From the NCBI GenBank assembly GCA_905250025.1, contig CAJNOJ010000100.1:148951-212950 (forward strand): a stretch of DNA of 64,000 nt, written 5' to 3'. Shown here piece by piece: positions 3,527 through 63,927 of this stretch. Below the pieces are notes generated by a model. The model did not search any database, was not told where the DNA came from, and was given only the letters and a program-made list of their open reading frames with translations. The translations under genes and the position numbers were made by a program. Positions within the stretch are counted from its first letter, which is position 1. Each line of letters begins with the position of its first letter. Origin of the DNA: Adineta ricciae (lineage: Eukaryota; Rotifera; Eurotatoria; Adinetida; Adinetidae).

Positions 3527-3556
3527 TTTGTTTTGATATGTGAATGTCTCTTGACA

Positions 3557-3566
3557 TATTTATATA
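3557..3566 (-). promoter_or_regulatory. TATA box of the pentapeptide-repeat gene
   Basis: On the minus strand TATATAAATA ends about 30 bp before the ATG at 3526, so the 5' leader must be very short. A TGACGTA motif lies about 80 bp upstream of the start (3607-3613, plus orientation), echoing the sites before the 80-residue gene. Confidence 0.4.
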
Positions 3567-20204: not shown

Positions 20205-20984
20205 TCAGGATTTCGTGTCTAGAACAGTATGGAAATGTTCGATACAAATATTTACTTCAATATAATTTCTTACTTGAATAAATACCGTCCCTGGGCCGGT
20301 AAATCGGCAAACTAGCCCTTCGCCTGCATGCATTCCGCTGATAATTCCGCCACCTGATCTTTCAATAGAATATGGACAATTCCATGCCACTAAATGGCCA
20401 TTATCAACAATCCACTGTTCTCCGTCCCTTAGATTTCGTTGAATAATTGCACCAAGTGATGTAACAAAAAGAATTCCAACACCAGACACACGGTTCACAA
20501 AAAGTCCTTCGCCTGAAAACATTCCTTTGCCTAATCCTTGAGATTTGGTTTCTTTAATAACACCATCGGTCATTGCTAGAAAACCACCTCGACCAACACT
20601 CCATTGAATAGTTCCGTCCAAATGAATCGGAATGATATCGCCCCTGGAAAAATAAGTAATATTATTAAAGAACAAAACGAAACCATTGTCTATTTACCAA
20701 ATAGGCGGCGCAAATAAAATTTCACCGGGACCGGTATAAGTTGATTGACACATTTCACCACCAGTGAGCATCTTTTTGAATGAAAACTTCAATTTTCCCT
20801 TCAATGTTATTTGTGAACTCATAGCAACCATTGCTCCTGGTTGAGCATAGAACGATATATTCGGAGACAGTGTGACTGATAAAATCGTATTTGTATCCCG
20901 ATGGTCAATTTTGAAAGAGCCTCCATTAAATCGACCCGTCATGTCATTCAAACTAATTTGCGATGCGTCTTGACTTGTTGCCAT
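20205..20984 (-). CDS. AIM24-family protein
   Basis: Two exons, 20698-20984 and 20205-20643, joined through a 54-bp intron in frame (ATT TG / G GGC); 241 residues. The sequence is a Gly-rich run of beta-strands: YAQPGAMVAMSS, then MLTGGEMCQSTYTGPGEILFAP, GMFSGEGLFVNRVSGVGILF, IERSGGGIISGMHAGEGLVC and RFTGPGTVFIQ. This is the signature of the AIM24/TIGR00266 family (TRAP-like beta fold). Yeast Aim24 is mitochondrial and helps inner-membrane organisation; bacterial relatives are of unknown role. No clear mitochondrial presequence is visible here. A GTAAG after VFIQ (near 20276) could be a donor to a further exon, so the last 24 residues are uncertain. Confidence 0.85.
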
Positions 20985-21539
20985 TATTCGATCTGCTTCC
21001 GTTTATTAATGTAGCGTGCAATTTAATGTATGTGTTACGTACATATATATATATACAGAAATGAGTCAACTGAATACGTCATAAACCACTAAATTCACTC
21101 TGTTGATGACTCCTGTCAAACAAATTTACATACGCAAATCCTTTTCTTTCTAGAAGTAGGCGGATTGACTTAATATGAAGAGAAAGAATTGACATCATCG
21201 GTATTCGAGCCTGTGTAAATAAATATACAGAAAAATAGTAAAGCAGCACTTTTCTTTCGGTCAACAACGGTTGCTACTTAGTGTTCAGCAGGTCATTGCA
21301 CAAATATCTAATCGCTGCCTGGTATAGTATTGAGCAATGTTATAATTCAATTCAGCAACATAGTATACACGAAGAAAATCGGTTACGTAATAAATAAAAA
21401 GATATTTAACAGATTAGAAGACACAGTATAATAAAAACGTTAGGTTCCGAGCGGTTATGTTATGAGACGATAAATCTAACACACATCCTGATAGGTGACT
21501 CCAATAGGATCCGCTTAAAGGACTTTGCTGTGCCATTAA
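20985..21539. other. 5' flank of the AIM24-family gene
   Basis: An (AT)n run at 21042-21057 lies about 60-75 bp upstream of the minus-strand start and may act as the TATA region. Nothing else recognised. Confidence 0.35.
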
Positions 21540-23195: not shown

Positions 23196-26100
23196 CTACA
23201 ATTCAGTTGAATTTGTATCAAAAAGCCCTTTGAGCATTTGTTTCCGCTTTATTGTTACGATATAAGCACGGTTTTCTACCACTTCTGGATGATTCGGAGG
23301 TAAAGTTTTTAATAGCTGTTCAACTGATCTTTCTGTAGATGCAATAGCCTCTTCAAATCTTCCTAAACCTGTATATGTTGTTGCAATGTTGAAATGTGTT
23401 ACTGCAATGGTTGGATGATTTTCTGGTAGTGCCATTAATTCAATTTCTAAACTTTTTAAGTAGCATGGTAACGCATCAGCATATTGTTCTTGCCGATAAT
23501 ACATAGAACCTATGTTATTATAGAGTGATGCAAATGACGGATGAGTGGCAGGTAAATATTCTAATTGACAGTCTAGAGCGCGTCTAAAATGGACAAGTGC
23601 ATCACCGTATCGATGCATTTTATTGTAAATATTCCCGATACTATTGTTGAACGAAGCTAGTGCTTGAGGATTTCGAGGTTGAACAAGACGTTGAATTTCG
23701 AGAGCTTTGCTATAATATGTCAAAGCCAAGTCTAACTTTTCTTGTAAAAGATATGCGTCAGCCAAATTATCGTAAGTTGATGCAAGATCTGGATCATTTG
23801 GTTGATTAATTTGTTGAAGGATTTTTAATGCACGTTCAAATGACTTAGCTGCTTCTTGATAATTTCCCTGCTTCAATTGTACAACTCCAATATTATTTGA
23901 ATACGATGCAATTGCGTTCAAATTCGGATTTTGAGAATTAATCTGTACATCGAGCGCTTTTTGATGGTATTCGTTTGCTTTATCATATTCTTCCTGACGA
24001 AAATACATTGAACCGATATTATTATATGTTGGAGACAATTGTACTGAATCAGCTGGAACAAAGCGAAGAAAGGTCGCTAATGACAAATGGAATAACTCGA
24101 CAGCACGTTTATGGTCACCACGTGCATGACACGTTGCACCAAGTATGTGACACGATGCTGCCACTGAACCTTGAAGATTTGGGTCGGTTTTCAATGTTTC
24201 ATCATCAAATATCATTTGAACTAGTTGTTCTGCTCGTGCTTGTTGTCCCATCAGCATCATTAATTTAATCAAAGTAACAAATGGTGCAGCGCCCTTCACT
24301 TCGTTGCGTTTGGCTTGCAGGAGTTGTTGTAAAATTCGTTCATTTTTAATTTCCACTAACGTTAAATAAATGGATGCAATATTATTCTCATTTTGATGAA
24401 CCTTCTCGATTTGTATGATTCGTCCCATCAGACCGATATTTAATAGAACATCATTGTCATCATTAACTCCGTAACGAAGTGAACTTGTATTCGCATACTT
24501 TGTATTAGATGTTAGATTGAAATGAAGAATAACAGGAATATATTCTTCGGATAAAGTCGGGAGGCTTCGTGCAATTTGAATTGCTTTCGAAAGATCAGTT
24601 GTTCCAGATAGAAATTGACTAAAGACAAGTAAATCGTTAGTTGAAGAATTTTTTTGTAAATCTTCAAGGTCATTTTGATGAATTGTTTGACCAAGATAAA
24701 CAAGAAAATCTTCTCCTGTTGGAATCGATATTGATTCATTGGATATTTGGTGATATAGATGCTGAATAAATAAACGAAGGTTGAATAGAACATCAGCTTC
24801 CGGTACACGAAGTGCTTTGTTCAACATCTAAAGATAAAATAATAACACCGTTTAGTGGTTAATTTCATCTAAGTTTACTTTGGAAAGAAAACATTGTCTT
24901 GTAAACCACCAAATAGCTCGACTTTTTTCATAATCATTTTCGAACTCATCAATAATCACTAATTCAGCATCATTTCCTTCATATTCTTGGCGAGAAAAGC
25001 TAATCAATTCTTTCAAAGCAAATTCTGTTTCTTCATCATCAAGAATAACTTCACTAATTAGTTGACAATAAATAAACATTGGATCTGCCATAGAAGAGCT
25101 CGATGGTATATTCATATAAGCGATTAAATCACGTGTAATATCATTGATGTCGCGAGCAACTTGTTTGTAAACTTCTTCGATGTCTTGACAATATCCTTTG
25201 ACTTTCGATTGTTTATCAGAATTGATTTGTTCATGATTATCATCAACTAAGATGTAAACTGTAAAAACTTGTTGTAGATCTTTAATGCGTGACAGAATCG
25301 AAGTGCTAAATGCATCCGAGAGAATGAAAATAACTTTTTCATTAGATACTCCATTGATAAAAGCCGTGCAATCATCGACATCATCGAAGACTTTTATGAA
25401 ATTTACTAGACTACGAAGATGTTTTATAGTTGATTCATCGGGAGGAGTAGAATGTAAATACACAAGAATAAAATATTCCACATTGCCTCTTTCTCGAGGA
25501 CCACTGCCAATGATCGATTCTGGACGTTCAACTTGTTGTTCTAAAGGATATTCCACATCTATTTGTAAAATGCGAAACGATTTCAAGTTATCACTTACGT
25601 CGCATAATTCCGAGTCGTGTCAATAATGCTTGCGTTGCATCATCTACGATCGATGTGTGAGGAGCAGAATTATTACTGAGTGCAGACATTGGTTGCATTA
25701 ATTGATCGCTTTGATTAGTATCGACGTGTGACGATAATGTTCGAAGGAATTGAACAGTGACATTAGATTGATTCGATTCGTGTTGATGATGATCATCATT
25801 ATCTGAATCAGAGTGAGAATCTAAAATAAGGAAAAAAAATAGTCTTTGTTTGTATATTCATTGTTGTGAAGAGAAACCTTTCTTCTTTTGGATATTTAAT
25901 GATTCTGATTTTGTGTTTCGTGGACTTTCCATGGTTTCTTCATGTGTGTCCAACGGTGTTTCGTATGCAGAATCGAGTAATTCGGAAACAGATAACATTG
26001 CTGATAGTTGTGGAGGACCTAAAAGACACAAAATAATTTTGCTTTTTATTTTAGAATTGATAATCGATTGAATCAAACCGTATATTCGTTTCGGCGGCAA

Positions 26101-27710
26101 CGGCGGCGCTGTTGACTGTGGTGTTGGCGATTCAAGATCTGTTGACGGTAAAGTCGGTAGAAAACTTGCTGAAAATTCTTCGGCGGAGTGTGATTTTATC
26201 GGTTGTGTTTCCGATAGCTCAGAAATGTCTGCCGAAAACCCTTCGCTTACTAAACAGAAAAAAATCAATCGGATTTCACTAAGCGATAAAATCAAACTGA
26301 CAGGCTTTGTCGTTATCACGTGAAGGAATTGTGAGTGTTGTTGGTTTCTTTCTCTGAAATAAAATAAGAGACAATTATCTTGAATTGATTCAAATTGATT
26401 TCAATCAACAAACTTCAGTTTTTCGATCATTGGAGATCGAATGTGAATCTGAGTGGATACTCTCGGCTTTTCGTTGTCGATTATTTAATGAAATAGGCGG
26501 CTTCGATTTACGAGTTACCTGGATGGAATTTAAACCTTTTCTTTTCGTATTTAAACAGAATATCCTACTTGAACAGTTTGTTTTTCACACTGCTCTAGGC
26601 TCGTTAATGATGATGATGATCGTTTTATCGTTGCATATGAATGATTTCGTCGTGGTGCAGGAGATGGACTTGATGAACTCTAAAACAATATATCGATAGA
26701 CTACATTTCCTTCGAAATTATGAACACAGACTGATGAGCTATTCAATTCACATCTAAATAGAAAACAGATTTTCAAGAGAAGCTTTTCGTTGTCAAACTG
26801 CGTACTCATGGCAAGGTTGTGAGCCGACAACACGTTCAATGCAGAAAAGATGATTTTTATCTTTACTTATCAATGAATGTTCACAACAAGCAATCATTCG
26901 ATCTTCAAGTGAATCATTGATGAAAAATTCGAAATGAATTCTTCCATCATTATGATAACGTTTCGATTTCAGTGTTAATCGATCTTGAAAGAAAGAAATT
27001 TATAATGAGAAAGATTCACTTGAAAATCAAGTCACTTACCTCCATATTTCAAACAGCCTTTGAAAACTGTTTTCCCACGTTGAACAATCATGATTTCATC
27101 GCCATGCTTATTCGCTTTGGCATTGCGATATGTGATTGTCACTAAAGAACATTCTCTTGATTCACTATGCTAAAAATTGCCAAATCGAACATGTTAATTT
27201 CAAAGATCTCAACAACGAACTCGATTCGTCCGATGGCGATGACTGTAACATTGAGAACTGCTGCCCGATCTATGTCTTGACTACAGTTAAAAATAATGAA
27301 AGTTTTGAATACAATAAAAAGAGAGAGTTCAGTTTACTTGTTCTTCACGAAATCTTGACGGATCGTACCGATATTGGCTGTCTCGACTGTATGACTGTGA
27401 CCGACTATTTCGTCGTTCGGAATACTAAATCGAAATTTGAAACATACCATACGGAATAAAAGTGAATGTTTAACGAACATCACGCATTATCGATTGAAAA
27501 TGTCGTCGAAGTTCATTTTCACGTTGTCTTTCAATATCAATTGCTCTAAAGGGTTTTATGAATAGAGATCCTTTACTTCAAATTCTCCAACATACTGTTC
27601 GAGTAAATCATTCGTCAACCGACGCCGTAGATAATAATCCATTCCTTGAGACAAATCTAGATGTATAGATGCGATGGATTCATTAGTAAAGTCTTCGAAA
27701 CGGTCTAAAT
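23196..27710 (-). CDS. ERICH3-like (DUF4590) / ART-like / TPR fusion protein, paralog A
   Basis: At least 14 exons: 27596-27710, 27479-27545, 27338-27424, about 27227-27280, 27040-27141, 26799-26983, 26569-26679, 26414-26518, 26302-26353, 26079-26249, 25878-26018, 25599-25820, 24879-25558, 23196-24827; about 1,240 residues. Phases agree except at the fourth, whose 3' end is unsure. N-part: charged helix (AIDIERQRENELRRHF), an Arg/Ser region, then an ERICH3-like DUF4590 module (VTITYRN, HGDEIMIVQ, VFKG, RIHFEFFIN, CCEH, VVGSQPCHEY). A disordered Ser/Pro linker follows. Then come a conserved alpha/beta domain (VFDDVDDCTAFING), an ADP-ribosyltransferase-like fold and seven or so TPRs (NNIGSMYFRQEEYDKA). 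The ART core reads VYLGQ, SGTTD and DND where active enzymes have R, STS and ExE, so it is probably inactive. The first exon (start codon) is unresolved; an ATG at 27642 is one candidate. Confidence 0.8.
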
Positions 27711-28831
27711 CTATAATAAAATCGAAACAGAATTTTTTGTTCTCTATAAAGAGAGCAACTATCAAAACTATTTTCTTTCCTTCTCTTTGTATAGGAATAT
27801 TGCACGTTGTTCTACAGTCGACCACATACTTCTATTCACTATACAACATTGAAAAAATACTTCGAACAGAACGCAAGAAAAAGGAAAATGAAGGTTCCTC
27901 CAGTTTTTTTTTCTCTTCCAAAGCAAATAGTTTTAAAGTTACACAGCTATGCTTGTCTCTTTTTTTGATGATGATGATGATGAGTGTTGTTTTCTAGAAA
28001 AATAACAGAATAATAAGGAGAAACATGTACAGTTATGATGACCTTCGGATATCAGAAGAAATAAAAACACTGAGAAAAAACTCATGAAAATATGTTTTGC
28101 GAAATAGACTGATTTTTCACGTTATTCGAAACAAAGATGTTGACTTTCCAAAAAATCGACTGAGACTTGCTACTAGAAAATCATGCATAAGATTTAATAT
28201 GTTACCAAAGTGATTTTCAGTCTTTATTTCAGGCAGATTAATATTTGAGCAACAATTTTGCTTTTGATAAGAGGCACGTTTTGGACTGTCAGACTGTATA
28301 TTAATATTGAAATGTGATTTTTATCTAAGAGACTTGTCAGATTTCACTTCCTAGCGAGAAAATTCCAACGTGAGATCTTTTCATTAAAATTTACTTGTCA
28401 TCTTTTTATGATTGGTTACCTTTTCACCGTGATAGATAAAAGAATCATCCTATAAACATGTAAATTATATAGACTCAAGAACTGTTAATATTGTATGTGA
28501 AAATGTTGTTTCTTTTCGAAATTATGCGTATTAAAACGAGGAGCCAATTTATTAGAAATACTCGGCGATATAGTATCTTCGTCGAAGACTTTCATATCTC
28601 AAAAGATGCCACTCATATTCATAGACGTGTGTGTAACGAAGGTCAGTACTGCATACCGTGAGGGTTTTTATCGTTCTTACATTATTTACTGTCTTATTTC
28701 GTGTTGTTATTTTTCGCCAGAAGCGTAGCTACTAAGTCACACGTTATTAAAACTACAAGAAACGACAGAACGTGGAAAAGAGAAAAAAACAAAAATATAT
28801 CGTCACAATTTAGATTGAATATGTGCTAATC
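27711..28831. other. Divergent intergenic region between paralog A and the RFFL-like gene
   Basis: The missing first exon of paralog A may lie between 27711 and about 28050. A polypyrimidine stretch and (GAT)n run occur at 27900-27990. The rest is AT-rich with no exon recognised; the promoter of the plus-strand gene should be within 28500-28830. Confidence 0.35.
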
Positions 28832-29861
28832 ATGTCAACCAATACTCCTGAAGAATTGCCCAATTGTGAACAATGTTCTCAGCAATATAATCTTTTTCGG
28901 CGAAGAGTGAGTTTTTCTTTATCAGAATATTCAAAAGAAAAGAAAACACAGATAAAAATGGTATTTAGAAACAATGCCAACTATGTGGACAAACATTTTG
29001 TTCCAAATGTACATCGAAATCTATACCTTCAACTAAAAAACGTGCTTGTCCAATTTGTTTATTGATTATTAATGATCGTACTACTCATGAGCAGTTAGGA
29101 TCTATTCGTATCAAACATCTTCGCGCATATTTAATCTATTCGAAAATAATCACCTCGAATCGTTTATTAGAATCATGCTTTGAAAAACAAGATTTAATCA
29201 ATTTAATTCAATCGAGAAAACAACAAACACCCGATGAAACATATGTTTTTGTCCAAAGACCGAATGAAGATGTAAGAAAATCTTCGTTTAGGTCACGGAA
29301 TATATATTTCTTTGAGGTTTTTAGATACCAGCACCTACCCCTACGATAGAAATTCCAAATAATGTTCAACCACAGCCTGAGTCAGTTCCTGAACCATTGC
29401 CTTCGCCACCACCTTCTATGCCAATTCCTTCATCATCAAAGATTGCGTCAACTCGGAAAACATTAGCTGACTTGTCATCATTAGAATCGATTCAAGAATT
29501 AACTGTTGGTCAATTAAAAGATGTTCTAAATCAAAATTTTGTTTCATATAAAGGATGTGTTGAAAAGCATGAACTCATTGCTAAACTTCAATTGTTATAC
29601 CGAGACAAACAACAACAGAGTGAATCCAATACATCTAGTAAATCTATTTTTCATATCAAATTTCGATTCATTTTACTTGTTATAGTATCAAATGGACAAT
29701 CCGATGAAAATCTTTGTAAAATATGTATGGACGAATCTATTGATTGTGTTTTTCTTGATTGTGGTCATTTATGTACATGCATTCGATGTGGAAAGCAATT
29801 ATCGGAGTGTCCACTTTGTCGTTCATATATCGTTCGAGTTGTCCGTGTTTTTAAGAGCTAA
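28832..29861 (+). CDS. RFFL/RNF34-like E3 ubiquitin ligase (FYVE-like + RING)
   Basis: Four exons in frame: 28832-28906, 28969-29271, 29325-29637, 29686-29861; 288 residues. An N-terminal FYVE-like zinc finger has CEQC, then RRRKQCQLCGQTFCSKC and CPIC. Next is a SAP-like helical segment (IRIKHLRAYLIY...QDLINLIQSR), a Pro-rich linker, a second SAP-like segment (LTVGQLKDVLNQNF) and a C-terminal C3HC4 RING (CKICMDESIDCVFLDCGH, CTRC-type pair CIRC, CPLC). This order is that of rififylin/RNF34 (CARP) ligases, which sit on endosomal or plasma membranes and ubiquitinate apoptosis and trafficking factors. It is shorter than vertebrate homologues (about 360-370). I chose the ATG at 28832 because nothing upstream in frame begins with ATG. 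It lies between the two head-to-head fusion paralogs. Confidence 0.88.
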
Positions 29862-30482
29862 CAAACTTTTCTTCGTCTTTCATTTCAACGAACAAAAATA
29901 TAAATAAATTTTTCAAGTCTGAATCCTTCTCGTTCAAGACGATGTGGTATCATATACTGTTTATTTTTAAGTTGTCATTAACAACAATACAATTCGAAGG
30001 CCGTTTATTTCTTTTTTTCTCTCTCTCTTTCTCTATTGATTACATCAAAACTTGTTTTCTTTCTGGCTATGTAATAGAAGAAAAATAAAGAAAAAGAACA
30101 GAAACCACTAGCCGTCATTCATTTTTCTTTCTTTTGCTCCATTAACATTACAGAAAAAAAAACACAGAAGAAGAGAAAGGAAGAGAATGTGAGCAATACC
30201 TTTTTCTTACATATGCTTCGTTATTTAAAATGAGTAAAAAGGATTTATGTGTGCAATCTAGCTGCGTTTATTCTACGAAATTTCTTTAAGTACGGAAAAA
30301 TATTTACGATATTAGTCATCCGACATCTTTCTTATCACTAATATTCATAAACACGTGCACAACATTCGTTTGTTGTAAGTTGGAAAAAGGAAATGAGAGA
30401 GGACAGAAGGGGAACGCTTAACATTTTTATTTTGATTTAACTCGAATAAATGGAATATTTCAGATTTTCTTTGTAAATTTGA
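29862..30482. other. 3' flank of the ligase gene and 5' flank of paralog B
   Basis: AAATAAATTTT near 29900-29907 is a likely poly(A) signal for the ligase gene. CT-rich and GA-rich tracts occur at 30010-30190. No coding exon recognised. Confidence 0.4.
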
Positions 30483-33246
30483 ATGGCTTATTCGCATGAA
30501 CATCGACGTCAACGACGATATCGCCATTCGCCATCATCTTCACAAAGTGTCATGTCATCGCGAGATGATGAAGAGCTCGAACAAGATATTATCGAACGGT
30601 ATGAACGAAAAGATGCCCTTCTGCGAAATCAAATAGGTTTTATGTCGTTTAGAGCTTTAGAAATTGAAAGAAAACGAGAAAAAAGTTTACGCCGACAATT
30701 TGAATATATTGTTCATAACGTTAAAGTTTGTATTTCTTTGTCAGGCAAATGAACACATGTGTTGTCTTTCTCTCTCTCTCTCTTAGAAATTAGAAAGACG
30801 CCGATATCAACGTCATCGTACACGATCGCCAACATATTATGATAGTTCAAGTGGCCCGTCTTATCGAAAAAGTTCACATTCTGTATGGAAATAATCGAGA
30901 AAATATCTTTTTTTGTAAACAGTACTGTTCGTTTAGTATCGAAATTCGTCATCCGAACGTTATTACGAATCGAGTTATTCGCGATCAGCATCAACATCCA
31001 GACAGACGATTCCATGTCAAGTGACAATGGTTTATCGGGGCATAGGAAGTGAAAGACATGGTGATGAAATTATGGTCTTACAGGAAAATATCATTGTTTT
31101 CAAAGGATTCCTCCGTTCCGAGGGTTCGTTGTTCGAAAGATCTTTTGAGAAACTGTAATCTTTTGGTTTTCAGAACCATTTAAGTTTAAATTTCAGCGGC
31201 GTCATCGACAATTGTTTGTTAGGCTGGAATTTTTTATTAATGAACTGTTTGAATGTCGACTATCAATCGACTGTGAAAGAAAACAAGTCGATGAAGAAAA
31301 CGAACTCTTTCAATTACAACATCTTGAACCGTTAAAACGTCATCAAAGGTATGGATTGCATTGTAACATTTCTTCCTTTCTTAATATGAATTTCCGTTCC
31401 AGACGTGACGAAGATGATGATCGAGAACGAGATGTCAAAAAACCAGTAAGAAAAGAAATACCTTCAAGCACTCGACAACCATGTAAGTTCGAGATTGAAA
31501 TGTTTTCTTGAATGAAAAGGATTTTGACTTTTATAATCCAGTAGTGAATGGCGATAGAAGTCCAACCGTTGATAATGAACGAGATCGCCATAAACCTTCA
31601 TCGAATCAAGTAAAATTTCTTTTTGTCAAAAGTATTCTTTCACGGAATGAAACTTGGCATTTTATAGACACCAGGAGAACAAAAGAGAACAACACGGGAA
31701 AATTCGTATACAAAACAACAGTCTCGACGTAGCCCCAGTCCACCAAAATCATCCTGTAAGACGTCCCGCTTTTCAAATGTAAAAATTTTAAAATAAATTT
31801 ACGTTTCTTCAGCAAAAAGATCCAATGGATCAGCAACTCAGGTAAGTTTTGTTTTCAAAAATCACAAGTACAACTAAATTTGTTACATCAGTCCAATGCA
31901 TCCAACTCAAAACCATTAACCAGTCCTGCAAAAAGTTTGTATTAAACTCTTTCTTTCTTGCGGAAGAAATCCCTTCTTTCTCTAGAACCCATACTTCCCA
32001 AAGCAACTAGTTCAGATGACGATAATGTCAAAACACCAGTAAGACAACTAGACAAATATTGTTGTTTTTCACCATTCAAACTTTTGTTTTTCAGGTGAGA
32101 ACCACTCCAACCAAACCAAGTTATGGTAGATGAGTTTTGCCTTGGTAGAAATATTTGCTTCGATGTGTTTTCTGTAACTAAAGGCCCTCCACAATTATCA
32201 ACATTTGCTCGTTCTGGTTCGGAATCAAATTCCGAAGAATTGCCTAATTCTACTCTACAAAACAACGAGAAAAAACCTCCGACAACAGAATCACCCAAAC
32301 CATCGGAATCTTCCCCAGAAAAGAAAGATGAAAAAGTAGATGACGACGACGACGAAGAAGAAGAAGAAGAAGGCAGCAGCGGTGGTCGTGGTGGTGCAGG
32401 TTTTGGCAGTTTTCTCCAGTTATTACAAGCTGTGTCCGGCGGTGCTATTCGTGTTCCATCAACCAATGATGATGGAGACGGTGTGCAGGGATTACTCGCT
32501 CGATTAGGAATTATAAACCGTAAGTTGGATGTGTGCCCTTTGAATTGACTGTTGTTGCGTGATGAATATAATTTAGAAACAAGTTCTCGAAATAAACTAG
32601 CGAATTTGACTCCTCGACAAGAAGGAAATGTTGAAAATTACCTTCTTGTTTACTTGGATTCGTCGCCACCGGATGATCCCATTGCTCAGCGACTTCGTGG
32701 TCTGATAAATTATTTCAAAGTGTTCGATGATCCAGATGATTGCGTCGCATTCATTAATACAATCATCAATGAGAAGGTGATATTCATCGTCACGGATGCG
32801 CTCGGAGATCCTGTTGTATCACGCATTCAAGACCTCCAGCAACTATTTGCTATCTATGTTTTGTGTCAAACAGAAGAACAAGCAGACAATTGGTCAACGA
32901 ATCAACCGAAAATTCGTGGAATTTACACGGATATCAATGAAATTCTTGTCAAAGTGAGAGACGATATCGAAGCTGATGAAAATAGTTCGTTAGCATTTAC
33001 ACACGCATTACCAACAACTAATGTAAAACAAGAACCATATTTTGTCATCAATCAAATCATTAAAGAAATCATTCTCGATTCCGACGAAATGACTGAAGCC
33101 AAAAATGAGCTTCTTCATTTCTGCCGGACAGAATATAAAGATAATCCTGAACAATTAGCTTTCATCGAACAATTCGAAACGAATTATCAAAAAGAAGATG
33201 TTCTGCAATTCTTTCAACAACAACAACATTTTCTATACAAAGTTAG
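30483..33246 (+). CDS. ERICH3-like (DUF4590) / ART-TPR family fusion protein, paralog B, 5' part
   Basis: Thirteen exons with fully consistent phases: 30483-30725, 30787-30882, 30937-31123, 31174-31348, 31403-31482, 31542-31609, 31668-31755, 31813-31841, 31892-31934, 31986-32038, 32095-32125, 32184-32519, 32577-33241; 698 codons. Domains match paralog A in order: charged helix (RALEIERKREKSLRRQFEY), Arg/Ser region, DUF4590-like module (TMVYRG, HGDEIMVLQ, VFKGF, RRHRQLFVRLEFFINELFE), a long disordered linker broken into microexons of 29-90 bp, an acidic patch, and the conserved alpha/beta domain (NYLLVYLDSSPPDD, FKVFDDPDDCVAFIN). The donor GTTAG after FLYK meets an N at 33247, and the expected ART-TPR exon is absent from the adjacent sequence. 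That exon exists in the second copy at 37639-38818. So this is an intact 5' half truncated by an assembly join or real break. Confidence 0.82.
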
Positions 33247-33247
33247 N
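33247..33247. other. Single ambiguous base at a homology break
   Basis: The only N before 45618. The 221 bases before it (33026-33246) are identical by eye to 37371-37591, and homology stops exactly here. That is typical of a contig join. Confidence 0.9.
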
Positions 33248-33349
33248 TAAATCGAGTGGACTGAAAGTATGCAAAGTATCATCATCTAAGTACAAATAAT
33301 TTTACTTTCAATCAAGATATTTGTGCACATTTAGTCTCCATTTGTTTAT

Positions 33350-34580
33350 CAATACAGCATCCTCAACGGATACAACTGTGTAGTAATAGTCTGTACGTGA
33401 TGTTCGAAAAAAATATATAACCATAGGATACCGGCTATAGTCAAGCGTATTAGTATGATAAATAAAACATTATGTTCGATGTCTAGAGGCGTAATAATTA
33501 ATAACTGATCTTCATCAACGAACTTTGAACTAATCTCCATGCACCTGACAACAGGACTGAACTTCTTTCTGGTCTTTTAGCTTTGGTAAGAAACATGCCT
33601 GTGAAATAGGGCTTTCCAATGGTACTCAAGGAATTTTTTGAGAGCTCATATACGATGATCAGAAGGATCCGAGCGATTTAAAGATAAAAAGCGAAATATT
33701 TCCCTCAAGTGCAATCTACATACGAAAACCATTATCTGCACTCGTAGAATTGAATGTATCACAAGTAGAAACAAATCTCGATGGCCTTCGTCGCAAACTC
33801 ATTCCTATTCCATTAATCAAGAAGCAGTTCACTGTTCCTATAAGGTAACTTTTCGGACATCTACTCGATCGAGTACAAAATGGGAGAAGAATTCCACAAG
33901 TCATTCAAGTCACACGAACACAGCTACCAATCGTACCTGCCTTCGCAATAACTACATATAAAGCACATGGACTCACGATGAACAAAATTGTAGTCGATCT
34001 TCAAATTCCATTTCAGACATTGCAAGTAGTGTCAGTATATGTACCACTCAGCAGAGTGAAGAGAGCGGAACATATAGTCATTCTTCGACCTTTTGATATG
34101 AAGGTTCTACCAGTACGACCTTCTCTTGCTCAAGACGCTAGACTGAAACGTCTAGATGAACTTGACAAAAAGACAAAACGAGAGTGTACCTTTTTCATTT
34201 CGTAACTATGTGTAAATCGATACTTTGCTAATAGTCTAGTTTCATGGTAGGCATATAAAATGTAATATAATTTGAAATGATCTTAAAATAATTATTTATA
34301 AATGTTCATTTCCTTTATCTCTATTTACACTTATGTTAATTATTATATAATTGTCTGTTTTTCGGCCATTGTACCAAATATTGCCTATCGTGCTTTTTCT
34401 GCTTCGTTTTTTGATGTAATCATCCATAATCCTTCTAATTGTATTGGTATTTCTTGAAAATATCTAATCTATATGGAAAATAAACTTATATACACAATAA
34501 TGCATTAAAAATATAACATCCGCAAGCGACATTTCTACGAGAAAGAGCTAAACGAATCTGCCTCGACAAGCGTTACTTGT
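33350..34580 (+). mobile_element. PIF1/Helitron-type helicase element remnant, copy 1
   Basis: The coding part (about 33700-34205) is the C-terminus of an SF1B helicase: IYIRKPLSALVELN, then LPIVPAFAITTYKAHGLTMN (motif V-like) and VYVPLSRVKRAEHIVILRPFD-type motif VI. It is broken by a stop and frameshift around 33846-33905. The last 100 residues form one frame (33978-34205). It ends about 370 bp later in a hairpin, GACAAG-CGTTA-CTTGTC (34565-34581). The left flank resembles 39690-39840 and 41430-41530. Copies at 39430-40554 and near 41430-41638 share the 3' end. Confidence 0.6.
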
Positions 34581-37169: not shown

Positions 37170-37189
37170 ATCTTGAGGGTGCCTTGAGA

Positions 37190-38818
37190 AAAATATTTGC
37201 TTCGATGTATACGCTTTCACTAAAGGTCCTCCACAATTATCAGCATTTGTTCATTCCGGTTCGGAATCGAAGTTCGAAGACTTGCCTACTTCTACTCCGC
37301 AAAACAACGAGAAAAAACCTCCGACAACAGAATCGCCCACACCCTCATCCTGCTATCTATGTTTTGTGTCAAACAAGAACCATATTTTGTCATCAATCAA
37401 ATCATTAAAGAAATCATTCTCGATTCCGACGAAATGACTGAAGCCAAAAATGAGCTTCTTCATTTCTGCCGGACAGAATATAAAGATAATCCTGAACAAT
37501 TAGCTTTCATCGAACAATTCGAAACGAATTATCAAAAAGAAGATGTTCTGCAATTCTTTCAACAACAACAACATTTTCTATACAAAGTTAGTCGAGGAAC
37601 TTCACTCACTGTTCAACAACTTCTTCTCTTCAATTTAGATGTTAAACAAAGGCTTTCGCATACCCGAAGTTGATATTCTATTCAAACTGCGTTTGTTCAT
37701 TCAAAATCTTCATCAATTCATTATTGCATCATCGAACAAGTCAACCTCCTTCTCAGAACCAATTCACTTCGTCCGAAGATCATGGAGAGATTCTTTTTGA
37801 AATCGATGTTTCCAATAGCAATAGTTATATGCTCGTCGACGAACAAGTCTTAGTTACATTTGGTTTAGTCACACGAGTCATAAGTATTGACAAAGATAAG
37901 AACGGAAAGACAATTGTACACTTGACAACCATTACTGGAGATGATCGACAGTATGACAAGATTATTGAGCCAATGAGAAAAGAAACACGTGCGCCGCATC
38001 CATCACTTCGAATTGTGAAATTGTTTGTTGAACTAGAACAGTATTCCTATGCAGTTCACCTCGGTCAAATTTTGTTAGCGGACTCTCCGACGGCGAAAAA
38101 AGATCCTCTCTTGGCATTGGCACGTACTTATCATTCATTGGGAACAGCGTTGTATGAAAAAGAAGAATTCGATGAGGCACTCTTTATAATCAAGAAATCT
38201 CATGAGATTTACTTACGATTTCTTCCTGAAGATGCGCCGCAGTTATCACCAACATGGAATAATATGGGTTCGATCTATTTACGACAGGGAAATACTGAAC
38301 TAGCATTGGAATATCATCAACGTGCCTTGAATATTCAGTTGAAATCACCTAGCCCAGATCTTCCATCGATCATCTCCTATTCAAATAATATTGGCGGAGT
38401 TTACTTAAAACTAGAACGGTATGATGAAGCACTTGTTCACTTTAAACGTGCCTTACAAATTGAAGTACAAACTCTACCGAAAAATCATCCAGAACTAGCA
38501 GGAACTTATCATCGCATTGGTGGTGTTTACTTTCGACAGAATAATTACGAAAAGGCACTGGAATATTACGACAAAACCCTCGAAATTGAACTGGCTGCTT
38601 TACCCGATCGTCATCCCACAGTTGCTGTCACGTATCATAATCGTGGCACAGCTTTAGAAGGTCTAGGCAGACTCGAAGAGGCTGTTGAAAGTGCCGAGAA
38701 AGCTGTAGAGCGTTTATTGAAGACTCTCCCGAAAGACCACACGCAAGTACGAATGAATCAAGCGTATGTCGATCGATTAAAACAAAAACTATGGGTTAAA
38801 CAATTGTTTACTACTTAA
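37190..38818 (+). pseudogene. Second copy of the ERICH3-like/ART-TPR locus, internally deleted
   Basis: 37198-37350 aligns with 32153-32305 of paralog B. Then about 545 bp and about 155 bp are missing, and 37371-37591 is identical to 33026-33246. After an intron (acceptor TTCAATTTAG) the big exon begins at ATG 37639 (MLNKGFRIPEVDILFKLRLF), parallel to paralog A. Most of the ART N-terminal half is deleted with a frame change. From about 37775 the other frame is open to TAA at 38818: the ART end (DEQVLVTFG), then five to six TPRs (NNMGSIYLRQGNTELALEYH). The TPR part is intact; the gene as a whole is not. Confidence 0.75.
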
Positions 38819-39429: not shown

Positions 39430-40554
39430 ACTAATAATCTAAATCTCTTCCTTAAACGTATGGCATAGGGTTTTTTTGGACCGAGGAATTCGAATCTAAG
39501 GTTAGCTTTTTATATTCTTTTAGAAAAAAATTGTTTTAACAAAGGGCCAATTTTTTAGAAAAAAAACTTTTTGTACAAGAGCTCACTCGAGGGTTTTAGA
39601 GGTCGCGAAATCGGAAGCTGATATTATTCTTTTAAAATTTTTTATGAAATTTTCTTTCAAAGAAAGGGCTTTTCAGAAAAAAAATTTTCGGCTACAGCCA
39701 AGTGTATCAGTAAGATGTATATTTTTTTTTCAATCTTTCGTGACGTAATACTTAGTAATTAGTTGCCACAAGCGAATTTTGAAGTAACGTCCATGTACCT
39801 GAAAATAAAACTGAACTTCTTCCTGGTCTTTTACCTTTGGTACCGAATAGGGGTGGCACTTTAACTTTATTTTACTTTTTCAAAGTAAAATAAAGTAAAG
39901 TAAAAAGGTAACTGACTTTACTTTACTCAGTAAAGTAAAGATAAAGTGGCATCAGTGTATGTATCACTCAGCAGAGTAAAGAGAGCAGAAGATGTAGTTA
40001 TTCTTCGATCTTTTGATATGAAGGTTTTACAATTCCGACCGTCTCGTTCTCAAGATACTGAACTGAACCGTCTAGATGAACTTGACAAAAAGACAAAGCG
40101 AGAATGCACTTCTTCCACTATGTGAACTGTTATAAATCGATACTTGGTAAGGTTTTATGGTTATTTCCAGTATATAAAACGTATTATCATGTTTCAAATT
40201 ATTTTAAAATAATTATTCGTAAATGTCCATTTTCCTTGCCGTTCTTTACATTTATCTTACTTAGTGTAGTAATTGCTCTTTTTCTCTTATTTTAGCAGAT
40301 ACTTTCTATCATGTTTTTTTACTGTTCTTTCTCATGTAATAGCTCATAATCTTCTCCATTGTGTTGACACTGATTTAGAATATCTAATTGTCTATTTAAC
40401 GTTTAGTATAAATCTCTATTGCTACTTTTGTAAAAATATCTAATCTACACGGAAAACAAATTCATATACAGAATAATATCTTAAAAATGTGACATCTGAA
40501 AGCAATATTCCTACGAGAAAGAACCGAGCGAGTCGCTAGACGAGCGCTACTTGT
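39430..40554 (+). mobile_element. Helitron/Helentron-like helicase element, copy 2, with an empty paralogous site
   Basis: Flanks 39240-39430 and 40555-40610 align with uninterrupted DNA at 46780-46930 and 46956-47010, so about 1.1 kb was inserted here. It carries the last 55 or so codons of the helicase (39955-40125; VYVSLSRVKRAEDVVILRSFD-like, broken upstream) and ends at a hairpin-like CGAGCGCTACTTGT directly followed by host TTAACC. The junction falls between T and T. A small foldback element (39846-39953) sits inside it. Confidence 0.6.
39846..39953. repeat. TTTAC-rich foldback element
   Basis: GTGGCACTTTAACTTTATTTTAC... is mirrored by ...AGTAAAGATAAAGTGGCA. About 108 bp, inserted in the helicase remnant. 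A similar GTGGCAATTTAACTTAAC...GTTAACGCCACCC element lies at about 42335-42400. Confidence 0.5.
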
Positions 40555-43043: not shown

Positions 43044-44655
43044 ATGCACACATTTTCCACATTACCCGTCGAAATTGTTTATCGAATTATGGATCATCAA
43101 AATGAGCTGACGCTATTTTGTTCAATGCAAAATATTTCCCGGCGGCTCAATCAGATCCTGAGCACCTATGAGCGATATCGAGTAAGTTTACTAGGCACCT
43201 TCACACTCTTGTCGGCTGTGCTCCGCATAAGCCTGGTGTAACGACAAACTGGTTGAGTAGCTGACCGCTTCTCACGGTATCGATGTTTATTGACTACTCT
43301 ACATGACCAGAATGTCTCTCTTTCACAATAAGACACGCACTTATATAGAGAAGAGGAAAGAGAGATATGACTCGGAGATAGTATGATATAGAGGTGAGAG
43401 AATCAAGAACAGAAAGAGATGAACGATATCATTATCGTTACACCTGGTGATATTTGTCGGCGTAAATTTCCTCATAGGCTGAGGTAAATTAATCTCATAG
43501 TCCCCAAATAGTTTGATCGAATAAGACAATCACAGTGTGAAGTCATCAAATCAAGCATTCCTCCATTCTCTCGTCTTCCTCCTATGTATGTTGAACTATT
43601 CGATGCATAAGTGCATCAACTATTACTTTTGATGAAACTTCCCAAATGAAGCAAACTGATCTCCACATTTTCAGGGTCTATGCTTATATTCATTCTCACC
43701 ACCACCCACACCAAATGCAACTCCCACATATCACAAGAGTGGGAAGTCAATTTCATTGGAGGGCACCCTCAAAAGAGATATCCCGCTACAATCAATAGCT
43801 ATTCATAGTTATATCCTACTCTTTCCCCACAATCAGCTCACAGTGATCGCGTGTCCATATTGCCAACACAGCACCTCTTCTCTGAACACAATCTCTCCTG
43901 CGCCACACCTACCATCATCATCATCCACACCAAAAAACAGACATCTAGATCCATCTGCTCCGTAAAAATCGTCCCCAACAATGACAATTTCTATCCAACA
44001 TATACAATCAGAAGTGTCATCAAAGATTCTCTTTGCTACTTGTCCTTTTCATAATATATTGCTTTCATGTAGACACTCACCACACTAGATCTCGGCGATA
44101 ACCGACTCGATGCTGAAGGAGCACAGCACATTGCGGATGCGTTGCGTACGAACACGGTAATATTGATCTAATTTCACGGAAGGTGAAGTATTTAGTCTCT
44201 CTCACACCTACAGACACTCACCACACTAAACCTCAGTTGGAACGGCATCGGTGCTGAAGGAGCAAAACACATTGCGGATGCGTTGGGAACGAACGCGGTG
44301 ATAGTGATCTCATTTCACGGAAGGTGAAGTATTTAGTCTCTCTCACACCTACAGACACTCACCACACTAAAGCTCTGCCGTAACGGAATCGGTGCTGAAG
44401 GAGCACAACACATTGCGGATGCGTTGCGAGCGAACACAGTAATATTGATCGCATTTCACGGAAGGTGTGGTATTCAGTCTCTCTCACACCTATAGACACT
44501 CACCACACTAGATATCGGCTACAACGAAATCGGTGATGAAGTGGCACAACGGATTGCCGATGCGTTGCGTCGGAATGCAGTAAGACTGATGCTTTGCTGG
44601 AACAGAATGGGGAATATTTGATTTATCTAATTCTTAGAGCATCAATATGGCGTAG
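43044..44655 (+). CDS. F-box / leucine-rich-repeat protein with one repeat per exon
   Basis: Exon 1 (43044-43181) encodes an F-box: TFSTLPVEIVYRIMDHQNEL, then LFCSMQNISRRLNQILSTYE. The ATG at 43044 was preferred to 42942 because the TATA box (42935-42942) overlaps the latter. After an 891-bp intron come four exons of exactly 84 bp (44073-44156, 44214-44297, 44355-44438, 44496-44579). Each is one 28-residue RI/NOD-type LRR (TLTTLDLGDNRLDAEGAQHI, then ADALRTNT). The last exon (44638-44655) adds SINMA and a stop; a relic in another frame follows to 44786 (SLNEMGEQVIVDLV). The 163-residue product is short for the family, so the array looks truncated. F-box proteins recruit substrates to SCF ubiquitin ligases. 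Confidence 0.72.
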
Positions 44656-45617: not shown

Positions 45618-45618
45618 N
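45618..45618. other. Second single ambiguous base at a homology break
   Basis: Homology to the TPR exon (38427 onward) begins at the very next base; the sequence before it is unrelated. Mirrors the situation at 33247. Confidence 0.9.
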
Positions 45619-45850
45619 AAGCACTTGTTCACTTTAAACGTGCCTTACAAATTGAAGTACAAACTCTACCGAAAAATCATCCAGAACTAGCAGGAACTTA
45701 TCATCGCATTGGTGGTGTTTACTTTCGACAGAATAATTATGAAAAGGCGCTGTGGAACGTCTATTGAAGACTCTTCCGAAAGACCACACGCAAGTACGAA
45801 TGAATCAAGCTTATGTCGATCGACTAGAACAAAAATTTACTGGCAAATAA
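45619..45850 (+). pseudogene. 3' fragment of an ART-TPR exon
   Basis: Starts in mid-exon at the N and matches 38427-38560 almost base for base (one TPR, HRIGGVYFRQNNYEKAL). About 145 bp is then lost between short GCxCTG/GCTG repeats and the exon's last 30 codons follow (TLPKDHTQVRMNQAYVDRL-like). The deletion is not a multiple of three, so the frame breaks. It may be the 3' end of paralog B beyond the join. Confidence 0.7.
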
Positions 45851-46138
45851 TTTTAAAAATAAATCAGATTTTGTTTTTCAAATTCGATTATCGAATGGAT
45901 TTTTCTTCCGATAATAACTTTCTTTTGTAATAGACATCAATTCTAAATCAACATTTTACGTCGATTGAATGTGTTCTCTTCTCTGTCGGCAGATATGTCA
46001 AAGACGACGAATGTTTATCATTCATTCTTATTTCATAAAGGACGATGTTATCGTCGTTCATTGTTTGTCTCTCACTTCAAGTCGACGTGTTCGACTGATA
46101 TTTATAGCGAGTGGATCCCAAGTCAATTATATATTAAA

Positions 46139-46735
46139 ATGAATCGACGATTATCGAGTGTGTTGAAGAAGCCATCTGGTCCACGATCTTCAAGTATTCT
46201 CTGTTCGGTTTGTTCATGTTATCGTTCGTCACAATTATTTGTTACTGACTATTGTTGCTCACCATTGACAAAACATCACAAACGGCAAGTGTGCGACTCT
46301 TGTCTTCATCAGCATGTACTTTCACAACTTTACTCTTGTTTGACAAATTCAATTGTGTGTCCAGAATTAAGGTGCCTTGCAAAATTGTCGCAGTCGGCCA
46401 TTTGCGATATTCTATTGAAGTACAAAAGTCATGATTTACTGAACGATTATCTACGCGAACAACAATGGGAAGGCAAAAGCGACGAATGGGTTAAAAGATT
46501 TGCAGCACGTTGTCCTGGTTGTGATATTCCAATAGAAAAGAACGGAGGATGTGACGAAATGATTTGTATTCGTTGTCAAACGCACTTCTACTGGTCGAAA
46601 GCAAAGCGCTATGTACATGAGACGAAACTATTCGAATGTCAATCGTTTCTCATCGTTCATCCATTTGCAGGTGGAATGATTTTTGTGTTAATATTTCTTG
46701 TTTTAATCTTAACTGTTGCTATTTTCTTTAAATAA
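46139..46735 (+). CDS. RBR-type zinc-finger membrane protein
   Basis: One exon, 198 residues from the ATG at 46139; an in-frame extension to 45965 exists but its unique part is missing from the paralogous copy at 39 kb. The N-half has a RING1-like Cys/His set (CSVC, YCCS, HHKRQVCDSCLHQH, CPELRC). The C-half has an IBR/Rcat-like set (CPGCDIPIEKNGGCDEMICIRCQTHFYW). The catalytic-type Cys of an Rcat domain falls at GGC. The usual FCW reads FYW, so one zinc ligand is lacking. A C-terminal hydrophobic helix (MIFVLIFLVLILTVAIFF) suggests membrane anchoring, as in RNF144-like RBR ligases. Predicted, not proven, ubiquitin ligase. AATAAATTC follows the stop. Confidence 0.68.
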   Translation: MNRRLSSVLKKPSGPRSSSILCSVCSCYRSSQLFVTDYCCSPLTKHHKRQVCDSCLHQHVLSQLYSCLTNSIVCPELRCLAKLSQSAICDILLKYKSHDLLNDYLREQQWEGKSDEWVKRFAARCPGCDIPIEKNGGCDEMICIRCQTHFYWSKAKRYVHETKLFECQSFLIVHPFAGGMIFVLIFLVLILTVAIFFK

Positions 46736-61922: not shown

Positions 61923-63927
61923 ATGTTATCTAAGATGAAAACAGTATGGAGATTAAAATTGACGAAACATTCACTAAATAAACAAAAGCGATTGAATAAT
62001 GCATTGTTTGATGAATCGATTGATGACAATCAACAACAACGAAGAGATGACAATGAAGAAGATATTACATTGATTTGGTTGAATAAAACTGAAAATAGTC
62101 CATCAACTGTCACATCACTCCGCAATGTTATTGATTATCTTCAAGTAAATATCATAAGTAGACGAAATAACAGACAAGAATCTTATTTTTGTCTTGCAGA
62201 TCTTCGACAATGAAAACGATGCTTTGTCCTATATCGAATCGATTGTAGATGAAAAAATTATCCTTATAACTGACGATGTATCTGATTATCTTCTCGCAAG
62301 ACTGGAATCATTCAAACAAATTCATTCGATTTTTCTTTATACTCCGAATTTACCGGTGGATTTACCCTCTAAAGTAACAGCTTGTTGTCTAACCGAAGAA
62401 CAATTAATCGATAAAATAGCTCGTAGTTGTAAACAGTTGAGCGATCAACTAGTGGTGTTCTCGATTTACAATCATCAAAAGAAAGAAAAAAGTGATTTAA
62501 CTCGTGAAGCTGGTTCGTTCTTATTTTTTCAATTATTCAAAGCAGCATTTACAATACTTCCGAAAACATCCGAATCGAAAAGATTACTCACGAAAAAATG
62601 TCGTCAATATTATGCTGGAAACGCGAAAGTTCTTGAAGAGATAAGAGATTTTGAAATAAATTATAAACCACGCGAAGCATTAGAATGGTTTATGAAGAAA
62701 TCGTTTATCTATCGTTTAGTCAACAAAGCACTCCGAACGGAAAATATCAATTCATTGTGTTTGTTACATTTTTATATCGCTGATTTATCAAAACAATTGG
62801 AAAACGAATTTTCTAAGTTTAAGAAACAAAACTCCGATTCTTTTCTAAAATGTTATCGAACTTTTCAATTTTCATCTTGCGATATTCAATATTTTCAATA
62901 TAATATTGGAAATTTGATTTTAACAAACGGTTATCTTTCAGCAACACGTAATCGACAACTGGCTGGTGAAGAGAAAGTCTTATTCGAATATACAATTGAT
63001 TTAAACGAAGTGAAGTCGATTGTATTCGCTAATATAACAGAAAATGAAATACTTTTCGATATTGGTACTGTTTTCAAGATGAACTCGTGTACATACATTG
63101 AGAAAGATCAAATCTGGATTGTAAACGTAAGTGCGACGGATGAAGGTGTTAATTTTGCATCAGAATATATTGAATATCAAAGATTGAAAATGACCAATTC
63201 GAATTTGATATTAATGCTTGGTCATTTAATGATCGAAACTGGTGATTACAACAAAGCGGAAAAGTATTTTCAAGCAATCTTACATTCATCGATTCCAAAT
63301 GACGAAGAAATTTCGTGTATCTATTTTCATCTAGGACGAATCTATCGATTGCAAAGTGATTATACACATGCATTGGAATATCTCAATCACGCATATGAAA
63401 CACATTCTCGAGCGAAACCATTACGTTTAGCCAGTGCTGCGAAAGCACTGAATGCGATCGGAATTCTTCATCAAGAACAAAATAATTCTCAAGAAGCAAT
63501 TGAATCATTTGAAAATGCTTTAAAAATCTATGGGAAAACCATTCAAGGATCTCATCCTGACGTGGCTGGAACATTGATCAATCTTGGTAATACTTACTGT
63601 CAACAGGAACGATTCTCTGATGCACTTTCATGTTTTAATCGTGCACAAACTATCTATGATTCTAATTTACCAACGAATCATCCAAATGTTGCAATGTTAT
63701 GGAATAATTTGGGAAATTTCTACTATCAGCAATCGCAATTACATCCAGCTTTAGATGCCTATCAGCGAGCATTAGCGATCTATGAGAAACTTCTTCCTCC
63801 GAATCATCCCGATATTTTACGAAATCAAAATAACGTATCGAAAGTGAAATCAATGTTTGGTGATCAATATCAATCGACTTTGGAATGGAAATACGGAGTG
63901 AAGAATACTCTGTTCGTTGAAGATTAA
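61923..63927 (+). CDS. ADP-ribosyltransferase / TPR protein (intact, potentially active)
   Basis: Two exons (61923-62144, 62200-63927) joined in frame; 649 residues. I used ATG 61923 (MLSKMKTVWRLK). Domain order: conserved alpha/beta domain (ITLIWLNKTE, LQIFDNENDALSYIESIVDE), helical linker, ART-like fold about residues 250-400, then six TPRs to the end (NLGNTYCQQERFSDALSCFN). The ART core keeps a plausible R-S-E set: CYRTF (Arg codon 62857-62859), GYLSATRN, and TENEILFDIGTVF with ExE (near 63037-63051). Arg-directed transferases use this set to move ADP-ribose from NAD+. No signal peptide, so presumably cytosolic. Unlike paralogs A and B it lacks the ERICH3-like N-terminus. AATAAAACG follows the stop. 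Confidence 0.82.

What the first reader, a model, noticed from the sequence alone, without database searches (positions are those of the whole stretch)
23196..33246. ERICH3-like (DUF4590) module fused to an ART-TPR protein in two inverted paralogs
Paralogs A (minus) and B (plus) share one order: charged helix, Arg/Ser stretch, a DUF4590-like module (HGDEIM, VFKG, FEFFIN, and in A CCEH plus GSQPCHEY), a microexon-encoded disordered linker, then the N-terminal domain of bdelloid ART-TPR proteins. In B I checked all 13 exon phases and they close without conflict, so one mRNA can span the whole. A continues into ART and TPR exons. ERICH3 is linked to primary cilia in vertebrates and ART-TPR proteins are a rotifer expansion. 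I know of no described protein that combines them.
Basis: partly seen in the sequence, partly recalled or inferred. Interest (0 to 1): 0.75.

Follow-up and report, generated by a model that had tools for sequence, protein, structure and literature searches.

The report
ERICH3-like domain fused to ART-TPR protein
Two related animal genes appear to join a rare domain, known from the vertebrate cilium protein ERICH3, to a protein with a degenerate ADP-ribosyltransferase-like part and a repeat scaffold; it looks like a new protein design, but no RNA evidence was available to prove that one message is made.

Summary
Paralog A (minus, 14 exons, up to 1250 aa) and B (plus, 13 exons, 697 aa up to a contig end) parse as GT-AG genes with closed frames. 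DUF4590 (PF15257) scores 31.5 bits in B and 26.1 in A against a cut-off of 27; 0 of 8 shuffles matched. A and B align at 31% over 672 columns and share three introns exactly. A runs on into an ART-like region and TPRs. Corrections: no Pfam ART model matches; only a low-confidence fold model points to ADP-ribosyltransferases, and A lacks the Arg and Glu of the usual catalytic set. B ends at an assembly N; a rearranged B-like copy with TPRs lies at 37180-38815. A third ART-TPR gene, C, has its own ATG and no DUF4590 found, so DUF4590 looks added. RNA and other rotifers could not be tested. Best reading: a scaffold protein with a DUF4590 front and a probably inactive ART. New variant of a known kind; moderate interest.

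The parts
23202..27710 (-). Paralog A, 14 exons: 27710-27596, 27545-27479, 27424-27338, 27280-27221, 27169-27040, 26983-26799, 26679-26569, 26518-26414, 26353-26302, 26249-26079, 26018-25878, 25820-25599, 25558-24879, 24827-23202; 1250 aa as modelled, start codon uncertain
   Evidence: all GT-AG, frame closed; aligned with B
26799..27169 (-). DUF4590 module of A (exons 5-6)
   Evidence: PF15257 26.1 bits, E 8.8e-6 (cut-off 27, narrowly below)
25599..26679 (-). Disordered linker of A (exons 7-12) with anchors YGPPQLS and ALLTRLGIM
   Evidence: disorder judged from composition only
24879..25499 (-). Alpha/beta domain of A, receiver (CheY)-like by fold, plus helical part
   Evidence: mean pLDDT 65.6, residues 11-120 about 60-86 in blocks of 10; best PDB matches are lysine decarboxylases, then KaiA and receiver proteins, TM to model about 0.4
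24285..24827 (-). ART-like region of A: Y-L-G-Q, F-L-S-G-T-T and D-N-D where C has C-Y-R-T, Y-L-S-A-T and E-N-E
   Evidence: alignment; model pLDDT 46, the 3 PDB matches with E up to 0.001 are one ADP-ribosyltransferase; no Pfam hit
23340..24158 (-). TPR array of A (approximate limits)
   Evidence: TPR_12 E 5.6e-51; limits from the union of TPR stretches listed
30483..33246 (+). Paralog B, 13 exons: 30483-30719, 30787-30882, 30937-31123, 31174-31348, 31403-31482, 31542-31609, 31668-31755, 31813-31841, 31892-31934, 31986-32038, 32095-32125, 32184-32519, 32577-33246
31006..31348 (+). DUF4590 module of B (exons 3-4, approximate limits)
   Evidence: PF15257 31.5 bits, E 1.8e-7 (cut-off 27)
32612..33244 (+). 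Alpha/beta domain of B, 43% identical to A
33247..33247 (.). Single N where B is cut off, probably a contig join; the 225 bases before it recur at 37367-37591 with 1 mismatch
37180..38815 (+). B-like 3' copy: 37180-37346 like 32138-32304 (85.6%), 37367-37591 like 33022-33246 (99.6%), then an intron-like stretch, an ATG-starting ART remnant (37639 on, frame change, shorter than A) and an open TPR frame 37778-38815
45619..45849 (+). After the second N (45618): broken TPR copy, first 134 bases 98.5% like 38427-38560
61923..63927 (+). Paralog C: ART-TPR gene with own ATG, exons 61923-62144 and 62200-63927, 649 aa, no DUF4590 or linker seen

Best explanation
A and B are members of an ART-TPR gene family that gained, in front of an older alpha/beta - ART-like - TPR core (as still seen in C), an ERICH3/DUF4590-type N-terminal half (charged helix, Arg/Ser stretch, DUF4590 domain) and a disordered linker. 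I think one mRNA and one protein are made (about 0.8). The protein most likely works as a scaffold: the TPR superhelix binds a partner peptide, the ART-like domain of A is probably a non-catalytic binding fold (about 0.6), and the DUF4590 half directs the whole to a site where DUF4590 proteins act, perhaps the cilium (about 0.25). Shown: open frames, homology of the parts, shared introns. Inferred: single transcript, direction of the change (gain rather than loss in C), loss of activity, location.
For: DUF4590 matches in both copies, none in 8 shuffles. A and B align through DUF4590, linker and alpha/beta. Non-synonymous change is lower than synonymous in the helix (pN 0.325, pS 0.553), DUF4590 (0.475, 0.759), alpha/beta (0.371, 0.639) and the short anchors YGPPQ (12 codons) and LLxRLGI (14 codons). 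Three of 12 introns shared in position and phase, one just before PPQLS; 0 of 20000 random placements gave 3. Between DUF4590 and alpha/beta the longest intron is 119 bp (A) or 59 bp (B), and the one AATAAA in each linker lies in an intron. In B no Met occurs in the spliced frame between residues 157 (DUF4590) and 646. C carries the A exon 13/14 junction region in one uninterrupted exon, pairwise E 2e-15, so alpha/beta and ART-like parts belong together. C keeps R, S and E-x-E, A does not.
Against: No RNA data. The Arg/Ser stretch and first linker part show no constraint (pN 0.644, pS 0.649; 0.633, 0.623) and linker identity is 22-27%; synonymous sites are near saturation and no test of significance was made. 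Exon borders were chosen by eye with both copies in view, so the intron count is not blind, and the intron after LLxRLGI is 8 columns apart in the alignment. My models use more intron bases than the best parse. ATTAAA also occurs in the linkers: A 26489 and 25900 (exons by coordinate), B 31941. An in-frame ATG at 32123 in B (intron 11 retained) and several Met in A exons 11-12 could start a shorter protein. A's DUF4590 score is just under the cut-off. ART model confidence is low.
Confidence: 0.6

Rival explanations
1. Two adjacent genes, or two cistrons of an operon resolved by spliced-leader trans-splicing: a DUF4590 gene followed by an ART-TPR gene that starts in the linker.
For: Internal ATGs exist (A exons 11-12; B 32123 with intron 11 retained). 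The linker is weakly conserved. C shows that the ART-TPR core can stand alone. Trans-splicing in bdelloids is recalled; one search gave a search listing only.
Against: No stop codon in the spliced frame between the halves in either model and no intron above 119 bp; shared intron before PPQLS and an intron right after LLxRLGI in both; order kept in two copies that are only 31% identical.
Confidence: 0.17
2. The two-copy picture is partly an assembly product: B's exons belong to a truncated or rearranged pseudogene and only A is a real gene.
For: Both Ns of the window abut copies of this gene (33247, 45618); B-like 3' copies at 37180-38815 and 45619-45849 are rearranged or frameshifted.
Against: B's 13 exons read through without a stop and its helix, DUF4590 and alpha/beta frames show constraint against A; A contains no N.
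Confidence: 0.15
3. The DUF4590 similarity is a chance or compositional match and the N-terminal half is an unrelated charged region.
For: A is below the Pfam cut-off and the matches cover 51 and 72 of 114 profile positions.
Against: B is above the cut-off, both copies hit overlapping profile positions (22-72 and 26-97), 0 of 8 shuffles hit; scores rise when the Arg/Ser stretch is left out.
Confidence: 0.06

Closest known systems
ERICH3 / C1orf173 (DUF4590, PF15257), human and mouse
   Same: A DUF4590 domain
   Different: Described as a 1530-aa protein with a 113-aa DUF4590 domain; the word domain occurs twice in that paper's main text, both times for DUF4590 (PMC6848114, passages). Here the domain sits in front of alpha/beta, ART-like and TPR parts
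Paralog C in this window (ART-TPR core)
   Same: Alpha/beta, ART-like and TPR in the same order; similarity across the A exon 13/14 junction
   Different: Own ATG, no DUF4590, no linker; keeps R, S and E-x-E; TPR part 30% identical to A over 262 aa, against 39% between A and the B-like copy
ADP-ribosyltransferase fold (Vis of Vibrio splendidus, PDB 4y1w, 4xzk, 4xzj)
   Same: Predicted topology of the A region, TM 0.51-0.55 to the model
   Different: Model pLDDT 46; identity 14-18%; catalytic set not kept in A; no claim of toxin activity
Receiver (CheY-like) and lysine decarboxylase wing domains
   Same: Alternating beta-alpha order of the alpha/beta domain
   Different: No family match above cut-off (OKR_DC_1_N E 0.0059, 17.3 bits, cut-off 29.3); TM about 0.4 to the model

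Membership tests
DUF4590 (PF15257) | Pfam gathering score 27 bits, paralog B | tested here: met
   B 31.5 bits, 29.0 in longer piece
DUF4590 (PF15257) | Pfam gathering score 27 bits, paralog A | tested here: not met
   A 26.1 bits alone, 22.5 in longer piece; its relation is argued through B
ERICH3 orthologue | ERICH3 layout (DUF4590 as the only named domain) | tested here: not met
   A continues into TPR; so not filed as ERICH3
ERICH3 orthologue | Ciliary location and role | not testable with these tools
   reported for ERICH3 in PMC6848114 (abstract and passages)
Arginine ADP-ribosyltransferase | Match to an ART family model in Pfam | tested here: not met
   no Pfam hit at E up to 10 for the A region or the C region
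Arginine ADP-ribosyltransferase | ART fold | tested here: inconclusive
   Foldseek E 3.1e-4 to an ADP-ribosyltransferase, but mean pLDDT 46.2
Arginine ADP-ribosyltransferase | R, S, E-x-E residues (motif recalled, from no call) | tested here: not met
   A has L, S, D-x-D; C has R, S, E-x-E; alignment of 3 sequences at 21-26% identity
TPR protein | TPR repeats above Pfam cut-off | tested here: met
   TPR_12 171.1 bits in A, 137.5 in the B-like copy, cut-off 30.1
Receiver (CheY-like) domain | Receiver fold | tested here: inconclusive
   3 matches with E up to 0.001, all lysine decarboxylases; single receiver domains from E 0.012; one Asp in the third strand region invariant in A, B, C, phospho-acceptor role not established

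The most novel reading that the evidence does not exclude
A lineage-specific protein class in which an ERICH3-type ciliary module was fused to a catalytically dead ART-TPR core, so that a core of possible immune or signalling origin was recruited to cilia or another microtubule structure of the animal.
Probability: 0.2. Interest if true: 0.6.

Novelty: new variant of a known kind. Interest (0 to 1): 0.4.

Why it matters
DUF4590 has almost no literature: 1 paper of the 5.39 million held names it. A fusion to a TPR scaffold would give a handle on what the domain does, and would show how expanded repeat-protein families acquire new front modules. The finding is modest unless the fusion is transcribed and shared across species.

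Tried and rejected
Whole-genome search: no genome is held for this window. Relatives of the alpha/beta domain in viral contigs (253 pattern matches) and prokaryote genomes (554), and of the ART-like region in viral contigs (600): none confirmed by tblastn. PDB by sequence, E up to 10: DUF4590 of B 0 matches, A/B profile 2 at E 5.1 and 7.2, ART-like profile 1 at E 1.4, alpha/beta profile 2 at E 0.093 and 0.18, C 0. NCBIfam on 4 pieces (C core, A and B alpha/beta, A ART-like): 3 weak hits at E 0.04-0.13, far below their cut-offs. PADLOC on 3 proteins: TPR models only, in 2 of 3.

Papers: bdelloid + ADP-ribosyltransferase + TPR 0; bdelloid rotifer + ADP-ribosyl + tetratricopeptide 0; bdelloid + ERICH3 0; Adineta vaga + ADP-ribosyltransferase 2 and rotifer + ADP-ribosyltransferase + expansion 6, of which only PMC3482391 was opened (one passage, on Het-C); C1orf173 17 papers, 12 listed, none opened for it; ERICH3 + cilia 24, 20 listed, only PMC6848114 opened. 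'Not described' therefore holds only for these searches.

Considered and rejected: that B is a naturally shorter gene ending at the TAA at 33248-33250, because the stop follows an N whose left flank recurs at 37367-37591. That closed exon phases alone prove the gene (one search shows they do not). For the B-like copy an extra intron instead of a frameshift in the ART part is not excluded.
Full report
What is there. The window (64,000 bases, 34.8% GC, two single Ns at 33247 and 45618) holds two paralogs in head-to-head orientation with an RNF34/RFFL-like gene between them. I rebuilt both by hand and checked splice sites and phase by script. B has 13 exons and A has 14, every intron is GT-AG, and the frames close. 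A is 1250 aa as modelled; its true start is not fixed, since the first Met is residue 23. A and B align over 672 columns at 31% identity, E 8e-68 in a pairwise comparison.

DUF4590. The domain alone scores 31.5 bits in B and 26.1 in A against Pfam's cut-off of 27; none of 8 shuffled controls matched any family. Longer pieces scored 29.0 and 22.5; single ORFs scored 17.1 (B) and 19.9 (A), and one B ORF gave nothing. So the module is real in B by Pfam's own rule and in A by its likeness to B.

One gene or two. Closed phases are not proof: 127 of 200 shuffles of the A linker and 170 of 200 of the B linker could be parsed too. The real linkers have a best parse with 339 (A) and 299 (B) intron bases, matched by 2 and 0 of 200 shuffles; but that best parse is not my model, which removes 438 and 500 bases, near the shuffle means. 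The linkers are thus unusually open, while the exact borders rest on splice sites and on comparison of A with B. Stronger points: three introns shared in position and phase, 0 of 20000 random placements reaching three (borders were chosen with both copies in view). A fourth, right after LLxRLGI in both, stands 8 columns apart in the alignment because of a gap beside it. Helix, DUF4590 and alpha/beta codons show more synonymous than non-synonymous change; the Arg/Ser stretch and the first linker part do not. No linker intron exceeds 119 bp; the one AATAAA in each linker is intronic, and ATTAAA occurs at 26489, 25900 and 31941. Against: internal ATGs that could start a shorter protein exist in A exons 11-12 and, with a retained intron, in B at 32123.

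The core. The alpha/beta domain gave a model of mean pLDDT 65.6 (blocks of residues 11-120 at 60-86) whose 3 PDB matches with E up to 0.001 are lysine decarboxylases, with KaiA and receiver proteins below. The ART-like region has no Pfam match. Its model is poor (mean pLDDT 46.2), yet the 3 matches with E up to 0.001 are all the ADP-ribosyltransferase Vis; below come many chains of anthrax lethal factor (a protein with an ART-like domain, recalled) and other ADP-ribosyltransferases such as HopU1. Where ARTs carry R, S and E-x-E (motif recalled), the alignment gives L, S, D-N-D in A and R, S, E-N-E in C (3 sequences, 21-26% identity to A). I therefore call A's domain ART-like and probably inactive. 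The TPR array is beyond doubt.

B stops at an N. The 225 bases before it recur with 1 mismatch at 37367-37591, followed by an intron-like stretch and an ART-remnant plus TPR exon ending at 38815, 38.8% identical to A over 268 aa. Like A, and unlike C, that copy has an intron just before the MLNK start of the exon. Upstream it lacks most of the linker and alpha/beta part, and its ART part changes frame. The second N at 45618 opens another broken TPR copy. So B's 3' end is unknown. A third ART-TPR gene, C, at 61923-63927 has its own ATG, an in-frame stop upstream at 61872 and no DUF4590 in its protein; tblastn of A and B found no DUF4590 stretch near it. Its second exon covers the A exon 13/14 junction region (pairwise E 2e-15). 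This comparison suggests that DUF4590 and linker were added in front of an older core, though loss in C is not excluded.

Function. ERICH3 loss shortens primary cilia and disturbs retrograde transport (PMC6848114, abstract and passages). Nothing here tests a ciliary role for A or B. I take a scaffold with a targeting front as most likely.

Limits. No RNA, no other rotifer genome, and no check of the species were possible. PMC3846280 (passages) reports Adineta vaga expansions of TPR, PPR and 7-transmembrane families, which the window's content resembles.

Noticed in passing
53875-60229 (-): Three tandem ORFs, DNA 84-95% alike; the one tested (59234-60229) is a 7-transmembrane receptor by Pfam.
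   Followed up: partly
about 28832-29861 (+): RNF34/RFFL-like RING E3 ligase gene between A and B.
   Followed up: partly
33247 and 45618: Both single Ns of the window abut copies of the same gene, which suggests repeat-driven contig joins.
   Followed up: yes
33849-34202 and 39944-40388: Helicase-like fragment (Pfam 22.3 bits, below cut-off 27); 34024-34468 has a 75% DNA copy at 39944-40388, perhaps a transposon remnant.
   Followed up: no
1-313 and 1142-1451: Direct DNA repeat, 96.5% identical.
   Followed up: no
44071-44590: Repeat with a spacing of about 141 bases.
   Followed up: no
2270-3559 (-), 4988-5434 (-), 6539-7138 (+), 20697-21002 (-), 45947-46732 (+), 50816-51379 (+): Pentapeptide-repeat, hemopexin, MSP, AIM24, IBR and PPR ORFs.
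   Followed up: no
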